A DNA stretch of 64,000 nt, taken from contig NZ_LVYD01000024.1 of assembly GCF_002077945.1 (NCBI RefSeq), positions 124,001 to 188,000 of the forward strand, given 5' to 3'. Position numbers and translations under genes: made by a program. Source of the stretch: Niastella vici. Its GTDB lineage: Bacteria; Bacteroidota; Bacteroidia; Chitinophagales; Chitinophagaceae. This document shows, piece by piece, positions 9,472 to 51,184 of the stretch; position 1 is the stretch's first letter; every line of letters begins with the position of its first letter. Under the pieces are notes generated by a model. That model worked only from the letters and a program-made list of their open reading frames with translations, was not told the origin of the DNA and did not search any database.

Positions 9472-10041
9472 TTAGCCCAGTATTTTGGATATAAGATCTG
9501 AATGCAAACTAATTTTCAGAAAAGCTGCCAACCCCAAAATGATCCCGGTTAAGCTTACAATAGCCGAGAAATAAAGCAGCCAGTTCTTTTGTGTTAAAGC
9601 AGTAATTCCGAACATGGCAATAGCTATGGTTAACAAGGCATCAGTCATGTCGAACTGGTCATCAAAAAGGTTGATGTCGTCATATTCCTTTTGAAAACCT
9701 TCAGCCTGTGCTTTTATTTCAGTCTTTTCTTTTTCATATCTCTCTATTTGTTCCGAATACTTTTTGATCAACGATTCGTTACCGGCAGGGTTTTGTACTT
9801 TAAGCAATTCAAGTGTATTTTCTGCAATAGCCTGTTTTGTACTCTTTGCCTGAAAATATGACCACGCATCAATACTGTGTGCCTGGGCCTGCGACATTGC
9901 CTGAACAACATTTCCATCCTTTACATTGCACAGCGCCATAAAAGTGGCAGTTATTGCAACAAAAAGTGCAACTCTTGAATTGATCTTACTTTTGCCCGCC
10001 TGCTCAACAGGCTCCTGAATTGTTTCTGAGATATCGCTCAT
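9472..10041 (-). CDS. DUF4337-family membrane protein
   Basis: A 189-aa protein with an N-terminal transmembrane helix (RVALFVAITATFMALC), the family signature WSYFQAKSTKQ, a charged coiled coil (about residues 90-125, IKKYSEQIERYEKEKTEIK) and two C-terminal helices. This matches DUF4337, a family of unknown function. It is a single gene on the minus strand, upstream of the convergent hairpin at 9355. Confidence 0.82.
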   Translation of the reverse strand: MSDISETIQEPVEQAGKSKINSRVALFVAITATFMALCNVKDGNVVQAMSQAQAHSIDAWSYFQAKSTKQAIAENTLELLKVQNPAGNESLIKKYSEQIERYEKEKTEIKAQAEGFQKEYDDINLFDDQFDMTDALLTIAIAMFGITALTQKNWLLYFSAIVSLTGIILGLAAFLKISLHSDLISKILG

Positions 10042-10128
10042 GTTGACTATTTATTTCCCGGTAAAATACTTTTAATAAATCACTTCCCGGTCATTCCGGT
10101 GCTTTTTAACAACTGATGCGGCTTTCAC

Positions 10129-10169
10129 CAAAAATAAAAACGGAAGTGAAATTTATCCTTCACTTCCGT
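10129..10169 (-). terminator. Intrinsic terminator of tRNA-Val
   Basis: A 10-bp perfect stem CGGAAGTGAA/TTCACTTCCG (10141-10150 with 10160-10169) is followed on the minus strand by TTTTTATTTTT. It lies 10 bp after the tRNA 3' end. Confidence 0.9.
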
Positions 10170-10178
10170 TCTATTCTG

Positions 10179-10253
10179 TGGATCGCACTGGGCTCGAACC
10201 AGCGACCCCTACTCTGTCAAAGTAGTGCTCTAAACCAACTGAGCTAGCGATCC
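10179..10253 (-). tRNA. tRNA-Val (anticodon GAC)
   Basis: A complete cloverleaf on the minus strand. The acceptor stem is GGATCGC/GCGATCC with discriminator A. The D-arm GCTC...GAGC is visible. The anticodon stem CTACT/AGTAG encloses loop TTGACAG, giving anticodon GAC (Val). The TPsiC arm has GGTTCGAGCC. The 3' CCA is not encoded. It is followed by its own terminator, so it is a monocistronic tRNA gene. Confidence 0.95.
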
Positions 10254-10430
10254 GTAACACGGAGACCGAAGGTAAAACAGTCAGCTGCCTTCCCCAAATT
10301 TATTACATATTTGAAAATGATATACTATTCTTAAATATCCCCCCCGGCCGGCAGCAGGAAAAATACAGGCATGCCGTCAAAATTGTAATTCGTTAACTTT
10401 AGGAAAGTATCACCCATTCAAGCCATTCAC

Positions 10431-47495: not shown

Positions 47496-50120
47496 ATGAA
47501 ACAAACCGGGCTTCTGCTGCTTATCCTTTCTTTAACCGTACAACTGGTACAGGCACAACCAACCCTTACTTTGGCCAACCGTAAATTGTCGCCTGTTTTA
47601 CAAAACAACAGCAAGCTATTGGCCAATAAACAGGAACAGGTGTTCTGGATCGTTGCATCGAACATTGATTCGGCCAAAAACTATTTCCGGGCAAACAATT
47701 TACCGGTAACCATTCTGCAGGAGCGTAGTGGTGGCCTGCTGGTAGTGCGTGCAAAAGGCACTACCCTCGATGCGCAGGTTTTATCGCAACCCTTCATTCG
47801 CTTTGTTGATGTACCCCGCCAGCCGCATGAAGAACTGGCGCTTAGCCCGTTCGACAACAGCCTCAACACCATAAACCTGGCGCACAGTAAGTACCCCCAG
47901 CTGAACGGCAGTACTATGGTGGTATCGGTAAACGAGAACAAGCCCGACACCACCGATATCGATTTCAGAGGCCGGTATATTTCAACCCCGCTTAGCTCTC
48001 CATTGATATCCTCACATGCTACCTATATGAGCACCATCATAGCCGGTGGTGAAAATTCTTTTTATACAAGCGTAGGCGTGGCCCCGGCCGCTTCTATCAT
48101 CTCTTCCAACTTCGCCAGCCTGTTACCCGATGCAGATGCTGATTACCGGCAATACAACGTTTCGGTGCAAAACCACTCGTATGGAACCGGTATTGAAAAT
48201 TATTATGGCGCCGATGCTGCCGCTTACGATGCCAGTACCATCAATAATCCCGGACTGCTGCATGTTTTTTCATCGGGCAATTCGGGCAACCAAACCAGTA
48301 CGGGGCCCTATGCCGGCATTTCGAACATGGCCAATATTACCGGCAGTTTTAAAATGGCCAAGAATATCATTACCGTTGGCGCCACCGACTCATTTGGAAA
48401 TGTTTCATTTTTAAGTTCGCGCGGCCCTGCTTATGATGGCCGGGTAAAACCCGAGCTCGTTGCGTTTGGGGAAGATGGCAGCTCCGGCGCTTCGGCCCAT
48501 ACTTCGGGCGCCGTATTGTTAATGCAGCAGTATTATAAAGAAAAACATAACGGCAGCCTGCCGCCCGCTTCGCTGGTAAAAGCGCTGCTGGTGAACAGCG
48601 CCGAAGACAAGGGTACCAAGGGCCCTGATTACCTGTGGGGCTTTGGCTGCCTGAATACGTATGAGGCCCTGCAGGAACTGGCCAATGAGCAATACTATTC
48701 CGGTTCCCTGACACAAGGCGCCCAACAAACATTCTCCTTAACGGTTCCAGCCAATACCCGGCAATTAAAGCTGACCCTTTGCTGGACAGACCCCGCTGCC
48801 GCAGCCAATGCCCCCAAAGCATTGATCAATGACCTGGATCTTGAACTGGTCAATAACGGTAACGCACAGGTTTGGCAACCCTGGGTATTGAGCCCGGCCC
48901 CCGTCATAGATTCCCTGCTGCTACCGGCAGTAAGAAAAAAAGATACGCTGAACAATGTAGAACAGATCACGATCGACTATCCCGTTGCCGGCAGTTATAC
49001 CATCCGCGTGAAAGGCTATTCAATTCCCTCGGGCAGTCAGGCCTTTTTTACCGCCTGGCAGGCGACTGCGGCCGATCAGTTCCAGTGGCAGCTGCCTGCT
49101 TCAGTTGATTATGTAACGGCTGGCGAAAACAATCTCCTTCGCTGGTCTTCTACGTTCAACACAACTACCGGTTTGCTTGAATACAGTATCGATAAAGGCG
49201 CCAGCTGGCAAACTATAAATAATGCTGCCACCCTGGCTACAGGTACCGCCTACTGGCGGGCTCCTGATACCTGCACTACGGCATTACTGCGTATGACCAT
49301 CAATGGACAGGTATTTAAATCAGACACGTTTACCATTTCGCCGATCATACCTGTTCGGGTGGGTTTTAACTGTCCCGATTCGGTCATGATCAGCTGGGAC
49401 CGGGTGCCCGGAATAAAAAAATATGCGGTTTATCAACTGACCGATAAATACCTGCAGTTGATTGCCCCCGCAGCCGACACCAGTTTTATCGTTAGCCAGC
49501 CCGGCGGCCGGTTGTGGTATACCGTAGCACCGGTGATCTCAAACGGCCGGTATGGTATGAAGGCCTATACCATCAATGTAACCACCCAGGGAGTCGACTG
49601 CTATCTGAAGAATTTCCTGGTTGACCTGGTGAACAATAATACCGCATCCCTGACTGCGGAGATCGGCACCACCTACAATGTAAAAAGCTTTACATTCGAA
49701 AAGCTGATGCCCGGCGGTTACCAGTTGTTACAAACATTTCAGCCGGGTAACCTGGCCTTTGAATATACTGACAACAACCTGGCCGATGGCGTAAACACCT
49801 ACCGGGTTAAAATTGAACTCACCAATGGAAAGGCCATTTACAGCGATCCGCAAAGCGTTTATTATTTCCTCACTACCCGTTATATCGTTTTCCCCAACCC
49901 GGTACATTCAAGCGGTCCATTAATGGTGCTGATGAAAGAAGAGTCGGCCAACACGTATTTATTACTGTTTAACAGCATGGGACAGCAGGTGCTGCAATAC
50001 CAATTAACGCAAACGGTAGAATCGGTTGCATTACCAAACCTCCAAAGCGGGATATACTTTATGCAGATAAAGAAGAATGGGAAGAAGGAATTTATAGGAA
50101 AGGTGATGGTGGTGCGGTAA
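47496..50120 (+). CDS. Type IX-secreted S8 serine protease
   Basis: An 874-aa secreted subtilase. Signal peptide residues 1-20 (ending VQAQ). The S8 domain (about 135-400) has H174 (SSHATYMSTIIAGG), oxyanion Asn262 (FSSGNSGN) and nucleophile S333 (GASAHTSGAVLLMQ). Where the catalytic Asp usually stands in VxVxDTG the sequence reads VVSVNEN; Asp151, 154 or 156 may substitute. A P-domain-like and immunoglobulin-like region follows (400-790). The last 75 residues are a type A sorting domain (FPNPVHSSGPLMV ... GIYFMQIKKNGKKEFIGKVM). It is convergent with rpsG across the 97-bp array. Confidence 0.88.
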   Translation: MKQTGLLLLILSLTVQLVQAQPTLTLANRKLSPVLQNNSKLLANKQEQVFWIVASNIDSAKNYFRANNLPVTILQERSGGLLVVRAKGTTLDAQVLSQPFIRFVDVPRQPHEELALSPFDNSLNTINLAHSKYPQLNGSTMVVSVNENKPDTTDIDFRGRYISTPLSSPLISSHATYMSTIIAGGENSFYTSVGVAPAASIISSNFASLLPDADADYRQYNVSVQNHSYGTGIENYYGADAAAYDASTINNPGLLHVFSSGNSGNQTSTGPYAGISNMANITGSFKMAKNIITVGATDSFGNVSFLSSRGPAYDGRVKPELVAFGEDGSSGASAHTSGAVLLMQQYYKEKHNGSLPPASLVKALLVNSAEDKGTKGPDYLWGFGCLNTYEALQELANEQYYSGSLTQGAQQTFSLTVPANTRQLKLTLCWTDPAAAANAPKALINDLDLELVNNGNAQVWQPWVLSPAPVIDSLLLPAVRKKDTLNNVEQITIDYPVAGSYTIRVKGYSIPSGSQAFFTAWQATAADQFQWQLPASVDYVTAGENNLLRWSSTFNTTTGLLEYSIDKGASWQTINNAATLATGTAYWRAPDTCTTALLRMTINGQVFKSDTFTISPIIPVRVGFNCPDSVMISWDRVPGIKKYAVYQLTDKYLQLIAPAADTSFIVSQPGGRLWYTVAPVISNGRYGMKAYTINVTTQGVDCYLKNFLVDLVNNNTASLTAEIGTTYNVKSFTFEKLMPGGYQLLQTFQPGNLAFEYTDNNLADGVNTYRVKIELTNGKAIYSDPQSVYYFLTTRYIVFPNPVHSSGPLMVLMKEESANTYLLLFNSMGQQVLQYQLTQTVESVALPNLQSGIYFMQIKKNGKKEFIGKVMVVR

Positions 50121-50155
50121 GCACTAAGTTAGCTTTGAGCAAAGGCGCAGCAGCC

Positions 50156-50607
50156 AGCTAACCGCGTTTAGTCGAATAGGGTATACCTGCACCGGGGTAA
50201 TTGTTGATAATCAGTTGATAGCGTGCAACAAGCATCCTTTGGGCCGCAAGCAGCTAAACGCGTTTAGTGGCGAGTGCTTCATAGGCACCGGATATTTACA
50301 TTGATAATCAATTGATAGCGCGCTACAGGCAATCATAGGGCCATAGAACAGCTAAACGCGTTTAGTCGAATAGGGTATACAAGCACCGGGTATTATATTG
50401 ATAATCAATCAGTAGTGTACATTAAGAAATCCTTTGGGCCGCAGGCAGCTAAACGCGTTTAGTGGCGAGTGCTTCATAGGCACCGGGTAATTATATTGAT
50501 AATCAATTTGTAGCGCATAGTAAGAAATCCTTTTGGCCGCCGGTAGCTAAATGCGTTTAGTACAATCAGCTGGGTATGCACCGGGTAATTATACTGATAA
50601 TCAATTC
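50156..50607. repeat. Five-copy 97-bp tandem array with alternating palindromes
   Basis: Palindrome CTAAACGCGTTTAG (one-base variants in copies 1 and 5) starts at 50158, 50254, 50352, 50449 and 50547, a period of 96-98 bp. A second dyad ATTGATAATCAAT (variants in copies 1 and 5) starts 45-46 bp after each one (50203, 50300, 50397, 50495, 50593). A GCACCGGGTAATTATATTG-like block links them. Units 1 and 3 share TCGAATAGGGTATAC, while units 2 and 4 share GGCGAGTGCTTCATAGG, so the array has a two-unit higher-order repeat. The 596-bp convergent gap contains no ORF. Confidence 0.92.
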
Positions 50608-50661
50608 ATTGTAGATCCTACGCTATAATACTCAAACTTAGGGTTCCGTTTCGAACAAACT

Positions 50662-50687
50662 AAAAAACCCACCGGAAAACCGGTGGG
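50662..50687 (-). terminator. Terminator of rpsL-rpsG
   Basis: On the minus strand CCCACCGG, loop TTTT, CCGGTGGG, then TTTTTT; 29 bp after the rpsG stop. Confidence 0.93.
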
Positions 50688-50716
50688 TGAATATGGTAAG
50701 ATGTACTTTACGTATG

Positions 50717-51184
50717 TTATACGCGGAAGTGAGCAAAAGCCTTGTTAGCTTCAGCCATACGGTGAGTGTCTTCTTTCTTTTTGAAAGCACCACCTTCCCC
50801 TTTGCTGGCTGCGATGATCTCGTTGGCCAGTTTTTCAGACATGCTACGACCGTTTCTTTCGCGGCTGTAGCGGATCAACCACTTAATGCTCAGAGAAACT
50901 TTTCTATCTGCACGAACTTCGGCAGGGATCTGGAAAGTTGCACCACCAATTCTACGGCTGCGTACTTCTACAGCAGGCGTAACATTGTTCAGGGCTTTTT
51001 TCCATATTTCATATCCGTTTTCACCGGTTGTTTTAGAAACGCGGTCCAATGCGGCATAGAACAGGTTGAAAGCTGTATTCTTTTTACCTCCCCACATCAG
51101 GTTGTTGATAAACCTGGTTACCATCAAATCGTTATACCTGGCATCAGGCGCTAAGGGAATTTTTTTGACTTTAGTCTTCCTCAT
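50717..51184 (-). CDS. rpsG: 30S ribosomal protein S7
   Basis: A head-assembly initiator that binds the 3' major domain of 16S rRNA, 155 aa. [20 protein letters not shown] at the start, [19 protein letters not shown] and the C-terminal [12 protein letters not shown] are diagnostic. Second gene of the rpsL-rpsG pair (29-bp gap), ended by its own terminator rather than running on to fusA. Confidence 0.97.

What the first reader, a model, noticed from the sequence alone, without database searches (positions are those of the whole stretch)
50156..50607. Five-copy 97-bp array of alternating palindromes in a convergent gap
Seen directly: CTAAACGCGTTTAG at starts 50158, 50254, 50352, 50449, 50547 (steps of 96, 98, 97, 98 bp), each followed 45-46 bp later by ATTGATAATCAAT-type dyads. 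Copies 1/3 and 2/4 share distinct linker sequences, so the array grew by duplication of a two-unit block. The two palindromes are conserved better than the linkers, which suggests selection on protein-binding or hairpin elements. Position: between the 3' ends of a secreted protease gene and rpsG. I cannot match it to CRISPR, parS, DnaA boxes or a known repeat. Candidates: operator cluster, chromosome-organising site, or a tandem RNA array.
Basis: seen in the sequence. Interest (0 to 1): 0.75.

Follow-up and report, generated by a model that had tools for sequence, protein, structure and literature searches.

The report
Species-specific tandem array of two palindromes
A real but single-locus block of five 97-base repeats, each carrying two short palindromes, sits between two converging genes of a Niastella-type bacterium; the related species examined have other repeats or none at that spot, so it is most likely a locally grown tandem repeat rather than a known type of functional element.

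Summary
The array is real: four full units of 96-98 bp plus a truncated fifth (50155-50607), each with CTAAACGCGTTTAG and, 45-46 bp on, ATTGATAATCAAT. Copies 2-4 are exact; the end copies carry mismatches. The palindromes vary less than the rest of the unit; a third, non-palindromic block (GCACCGG) is also invariant. The array occurs once in a 10.06-Mb genome. No match was found in 393 other family genomes, 9 of them of the genus. Gene order (S8 protease, gap, rpsG) is kept in 10 of 10 genus genomes, but the gap ranges from 84 to 726 bp; 7 of the 9 other gaps hold tandem repeats, none this one. Units do not fold as RNA better than shuffles. No parS, DnaA, CRP, Fur or Bacteroidetes-type promoter match lies in the array. 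Best reading: a lineage-specific minisatellite grown by tandem duplication in a fast-changing convergent gap. A bound array of dimer sites is the main rival, because plain neutral growth does not easily explain conservation focused on the dyads. No close strain was available to decide. Interest modest.

The parts
50155..50250 (+). Repeat unit 1 (96 bp); palindrome 1 at 50158-50171 (1 mismatch), palindrome 2 at 50203-50215 (2 mismatches), GCACCGG at 50189-50195
50251..50348 (+). Repeat unit 2 (98 bp); exact palindromes at 50254-50267 and 50300-50312, GCACCGG at 50285-50291
50349..50445 (+). Repeat unit 3 (97 bp); exact palindromes at 50352-50365 and 50397-50409, GCACCGG at 50383-50389; linker like unit 1
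50446..50543 (+). Repeat unit 4 (98 bp); exact palindromes at 50449-50462 and 50495-50507, GCACCGG at 50480-50486; linker like unit 2
50544..50607 (+). Truncated unit 5; palindromes with one mismatch each at 50547-50560 and 50593-50605, GCACCGG at 50578-50584; a third kind of linker
47496..50120 (+). Left neighbour: subtilase (Peptidase_S8) with Por secretion C-terminal sorting domain
50667..50688 (-). Terminator-like hairpin downstream of rpsG; a hairpin at the like place is seen in the gaps of the genus relatives
   Evidence: relatives compared by eye
50717..51184 (-). Right neighbour: rpsG (ribosomal protein S7)

Best explanation
A lineage-specific complex minisatellite. Shown: a ~97-bp unit, repeated as a two-unit block, occupies a convergent gap that differs in length and repeat content among the species of the genus; inner copies have perfect dyads and the end copies worn ones. 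Inferred: the unit was duplicated locally by slipped-strand replication or unequal recombination, the dyads acting as hairpin-prone pause points that promote misalignment and are kept regular by copying from sister units. The gap lies between two gene 3' ends, so it tolerates such growth. No dedicated function is needed.
For: Single locus in 10.06 Mb; no match in the other 9 genus genomes or the other 393 family genomes. Gene order kept in 10 of 10 genus genomes while the gap varies 84-726 bp. TRF at score 30 finds repeats in 8 of 10 gaps, this one included; in the 9 gaps long enough to test after trimming, repeats cover 1274 bp (452 of them here) against a mean of 15 bp in shuffles. Intergenic tandem repeats are common here: 36 of 112 convergent gaps in a 2.06-Mb sample of this genome and 22 of 26 in 0.4 Mb of relative G001. 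The double-unit period fits better than the single one. All five variable palindrome columns are due to end units 1 and 5.
Against: Conservation is concentrated on two perfect dyads and one 7-bp block, which plain neutral duplication does not predict. In 2.06 Mb this is the only array with two different palindromes each present three or more times within 700 bp, and of the 112 convergent gaps sampled it has the most repeat-covered bases at score 50, so it is not a typical repeat of this genome. Palindrome-driven copying is inferred, not shown. Copy-number variation among strains was not testable.
Confidence: 0.55

Rival explanations
1. A locus-specific array of protein-binding sites: two kinds of dimer site alternate, ten sites in all, bound as a DNA-level cluster (boundary between converging transcripts, sponge, or anchoring site).
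For: Invariant columns cluster in runs more than in any of 20000 column permutations, and the dyads vary less than the rest of the unit (p = 4e-6 in four copies). Spacing between dyad centres is kept (44.5-45.5 and 51.5-52.5 bp) while linkers differ. Units do not fold as RNA.
Against: No further copy of palindrome 1 at up to 1 mismatch in the genome, and neither half-site pair is in excess at its spacer outside the array in 2.06 Mb. No counterpart found in other family genomes. The four nearby genes that I classified are two M57 peptidases, a subtilase and rpsG, none a DNA-binding regulator (other genes of the window were not classified). Centres are not in helical phase. End units decay.
Confidence: 0.28
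2. A structured RNA or hairpin-rich 3' end of the protease transcript.
For: It lies after the protease stop codon and before the rpsG hairpin. Some relatives' gaps fold strongly (z -7.1, -7.6 and -8.3 on the + strand in G001, G009 and G004; the rpsG hairpin was not trimmed off there).
Against: 8 of 10 single-unit folds have z above 0 (range -1.06 to +1.95); the whole array has z -1.6 (+) and -0.7 (-). No dyad change is compensated. Rfam gave nothing near a gathering score.
Confidence: 0.08
3. Remnant of a mobile or palindromic interspersed element (REP/BIME-like or MITE-like) that expanded in place.
For: Alternating palindromes with linkers between convergent genes resemble BIMEs in layout (layout recalled; that REPs often lie between convergent genes was read in passages of PMC1525189).
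Against: No second locus in the genome; no match in plasmids or phages, and no exact two-palindrome match in viral contigs.
Confidence: 0.05
4. Assembly artefact.
For: Draft genome of 134 contigs.
Against: The array lies 174 kb inside a 430-kb contig and its copies differ at many positions.
Confidence: 0.02

Closest known systems
Bacterial minisatellite / VNTR locus
   Same: Head-to-tail imperfect copies of a unit, intergenic, found in one species only, worn at the ends.
   Different: Conservation is focused on two dyads and one short block; copy-number variation among strains could not be tested.
BIME (mosaic of REP palindromic units), enterobacteria
   Same: Alternating palindromic elements with linkers between convergent genes (layout recalled; location passages in PMC1525189).
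   Different: REP/BIME are dispersed in many copies (recalled); this is one locus, its dyads are 13-14 bp, and its units do not fold well as RNA.
Iteron / centromere-like arrays and operator clusters
   Same: Regularly spaced repeated dyads in a short block.
   Different: The four nearby genes classified are not partition or regulator genes; no parS core in the array; no relative searched carries it.

Membership tests
Minisatellite / tandem repeat | Three or more head-to-tail copies of a unit of about 10-100 bp | tested here: met
   TRF: 4.3 copies of period 98 (50189-50606) or 2.3 of 195 (50155-50605)
Minisatellite / tandem repeat | Copy number varies among strains | not testable with these tools
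   No second strain of this species came up in the searches made
REP/BIME | Many dispersed copies in the genome (recalled) | tested here: not met
REP/BIME | Palindromic unit folding as a stable hairpin (recalled) | tested here: not met
   8 of 10 unit folds with z above 0
CRISPR array | Near-identical short repeats with unique spacers | tested here: not met
   Linkers are shared between copies 1/3 and 2/4, and units match at 70-86%
CRISPR array | cas genes nearby | not tested
   Only four nearby genes were classified
Centromere / parS-type site | parS 16-mer (recalled) in the array | tested here: not met
   No parS and no CACGTG core in 50130-50640
Centromere / parS-type site | Adjacent parA/parB | tested here: inconclusive
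   The four nearby genes classified are peptidases and rpsG; the rest of the window was not classified
DnaA-box cluster | TTATNCACA boxes (recalled) | tested here: not met
Operator cluster of a dispersed regulator | Same site elsewhere in the genome | tested here: not met
   Palindrome 1. Palindrome 2 at up to 1 mismatch gives 63 rows in the genome, 7 of them in the array, against 9 for its reversed control; I attribute this excess to word composition because the TTGAT-1-ATCAA pair is not in excess in a 2.06-Mb sample (3 against a mean of 2.95)

The most novel reading that the evidence does not exclude
The array is a young, locus-specific DNA platform: two different dimeric proteins (or one protein with two modes) bind ten alternating dyads at fixed spacing and act as a boundary between converging transcription of a ribosomal-protein gene and a secreted protease gene, in a gap where most species of the genus have built repeat arrays of their own.
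Probability: 0.15. Interest if true: 0.6.

Novelty: new member of a known kind. Interest (0 to 1): 0.25.

Why it matters
As a single array it matters little. What could matter is the pattern around it: one syntenic convergent gap in which tandem repeats of different unit length are present in most of the genus genomes examined, which makes the question of why convergent gaps breed repeats (mutation alone or a selected 3'-end boundary) testable with one locus and a set of strains.

Tried and rejected
parS, DnaA boxes, CRP-type, Fur-type (a partial string) and a Bacteroidetes-type promoter: no match in 50130-50640 (all consensus strings recalled). Sigma-70-type promoter-like sites: 6 found in 50000-50800 against 2.1 (sd 1.3) in shuffles; three lie in or touch the array (two in unit 3, one in unit 5) and none in units 1, 2 or 4, so they are not a feature of the unit. 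Terminator-like sites: 2 against 0.8, the rpsG hairpin and a weak one over the protease stop codon. IHF-type consensus (recalled) matches at three places overlapping palindrome 2 (units 1, 2 and 5), not in units 3 and 4.

Rfam: two sub-threshold hits over the rpsG end, none over the array. A 19-nt exact match to palindrome 1 in contig C84 (L027, E 0.04) lies in an intergenic dyad upstream of a long ORF; E is near chance for this genome. DNA search of the genus: 8 of the 9 other genomes have hits at E up to 1, the best 0.12, of 16-37 bases. Profile search of the family: 74 other genomes have a hit at E up to 0.1 per genome, partial and weak (best 21.1 bits against 60.1-72.2 for the true copies); about 39 would be expected at that limit and E-values of the model are rough; I judged them from the table and inspected none of the loci. 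Helical phasing: not found.

Limits of my own scripts: the gap folds of relatives include the rpsG hairpin because my trimming pattern failed. Gene calls come from a crude codon-scoring ORF picker (75% coding), so gap classes are approximate; the cruder picker misfiled this very gap as codirectional. The palindrome-cluster scan saw only perfect palindromes of 10 or more bases; besides this array it found one single-palindrome cluster in this genome (L099) and one in G001 (L180). Literature: on repeats in intergenic or convergent gaps, 58 on BIMEs, 59 on Niastella (10 of 85 papers listed); nothing describing this array was seen in those listings, and only open-licence PMC papers are held. Only PMC1525189 was opened, and only passages of it.

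Full report
What is there. Between the stop codon of a subtilase gene (47496-50120, Peptidase_S8 plus a Por secretion tail) and the end of rpsG on the other strand (50717-51184) lies a 596-bp gap. Of it, 50155-50607 is a tandem array of four full units (96, 98, 97, 98 bp) and a truncated fifth. Each unit has CTAAACGCGTTTAG, then 45-46 bp later ATTGATAATCAAT. Copies 2, 3 and 4 are exact for both; copy 1 has one and two mismatches, copy 5 one and one. The 14-mer is expected 0.16 times in the window at up to 2 mismatches and occurs 5 times.

Anatomy. Aligned, the five units show three conserved blocks: palindrome 1 with its flanks, GCACCGG, and palindrome 2. A 16-column linker between palindrome 1 and GCACCGG comes in three kinds: units 1 and 3, units 2 and 4, and unit 5. 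The double period of 195 bp fits better than the single one (86% over the first four units and 80% over five, against 70-74%). Palindrome columns vary less than the rest: 5 of 27 against 24 of 36 over five copies, 3 of 27 against 44 of 71 over the four full copies, and 5 of 27 against 10 of 20 over five copies when the exchanged linker is left out (p = 3e-4, 4e-6, 0.03). These tests are after the fact and the copies share history, so they overstate the strength. None of the changes in the palindromes is compensated on the other arm. Dyad centres step by 44.5-45.5 and 51.5-52.5 bp and are not in helical phase.

One locus only. In the whole genome (10,058,349 bp, 134 contigs) palindrome 1 at up to one mismatch occurs only in the array. 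At up to three mismatches of an 18-mer, 8 rows lie outside the array against 5 for the reversed control. Palindrome 2, being A/T-rich, gives 63 rows at up to one mismatch, 7 of them in the array, against 9 for its reversed control. That result goes against my reading as it stands; but in a 2.06-Mb sample outside the array TTGAT-1-ATCAA occurs 3 times against a mean of 2.95 for permuted half-sites, and CTAAA-4-TTTAG 0 times against 3.9, so I read the excess as word composition. Neither dyad looks like the operator of a dispersed regulon.

Not found in relatives. The array as DNA has no match at E 0.001 in 38 other genomes; in the other 9 genus genomes the best hit at E up to 1 has E 0.12. The exact two-palindrome pattern is absent from the other 393 of 394 family genomes searched, from genome contigs and from viral contigs; a distant blastn found nothing in plasmids or phages. 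A sequence profile of the five units finds the five true copies at 60.1-72.2 bits and nothing above 21.1 bits in 393 other family genomes, where 74 have some weak partial hit at E up to 0.1.

The gap itself turns over. The protease-gap-rpsG order is kept in 10 of 10 genus genomes, the gap measuring 84, 116, 201, 209, 224, 243, 361, 596, 614 and 726 bp. A hairpin near rpsG is visible in each (by eye). Eight of the ten gaps, this one included, hold tandem repeats at TRF score 30, with periods from 7 to 195 bp; two (G002, G007) hold none. In the nine gaps long enough to test after trimming 70 bp, repeats cover 1274 bp, 452 of them in this gap, against a mean of 15 bp in shuffles. Repeats are partly a trait of these genomes: 36 of 112 convergent gaps in the sample of this genome and 22 of 26 in the sample of relative G001 hold repeats at that score, so this gap need not be special. 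Among the 112 convergent gaps sampled here this array covers the most bases at score 50, although some other gaps (one codirectional, one divergent) hold more. In 2.06 Mb it is the only array with two different perfect palindromes each repeated at least three times within 700 bp.

Not an RNA array. Eight of ten single-unit folds (both strands) have positive z-scores, the other two are -0.49 and -1.06; the whole array has z -1.6 and -0.7. Rfam gave only two sub-threshold hits over the rpsG end.

Judgement. The tandem structure, the single locus, the worn ends and the turnover of the same gap in relatives point to a lineage-specific minisatellite grown by local duplication. The focus of conservation on two perfect dyads is the observation this reading does not explain well; I propose hairpin-driven misalignment and copying as the cause, which is inferred. 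A locus-specific bound array is the main rival at 0.28. No close strain was available, so the test that would separate the two (copy-number variation against constrained dyads) could not be run.

Noticed in passing
L091:14692-14993, L099:4681-4986, L146:19304-19465 (own genome); gap of G001 (L174, about 10025-10316): A/T-rich tandem arrays of period 84 (and 42, 21) with dyads such as TTTAATTAAA and a common look (TTTAATTAAACGAAA-like) at three places in this genome, and a 42/84-bp array of similar look in the protease-rpsG gap of relative G001 (likeness by eye, blastn of the G001 gap against L099 gives only E 0.01). 21, 42 and 84 bp are whole numbers of helical turns at 10.5 bp.
   Followed up: partly
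2.06-Mb sample of the window's genome (L053-L112, L128-L167, window): Of 105 intergenic tandem arrays at TRF score 50, 53 have a period that is a multiple of 7 (7, 14, 21, 35, 84 and others); of 38 genic ones, 8. In 0.4 Mb of G001 it is 22 of 73 intergenic and 5 of 16 genic; periods 8 and 16 are also frequent there. No chance expectation was computed.
   Followed up: partly
L064:886-1443, L062:8985-9540, L146:13393-14046: Very long short-unit arrays: about 80 copies of a 7-mer, 40 copies of a 14-mer, 19 copies of a 35-mer.
   Followed up: no
L027 around 1480-1525 (contig C84:25702-25723): A lone dyad CAGGCAG...CTAAAAACGCGTTTAG...CTGCCTG upstream of a long ORF, sharing 19 exact bases with the array.
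   Followed up: partly
2.06-Mb sample of the window's genome: The half-site pair TTGAT..ATCAA is most frequent with a spacer of 3 (17) or 4 (11) bases, against 3-9 at the other spacers from 0 to 12.
   Followed up: no
window:45318-47208: Two neighbouring M57-family (HEIGH) metallopeptidase genes beside the subtilase.
   Followed up: no
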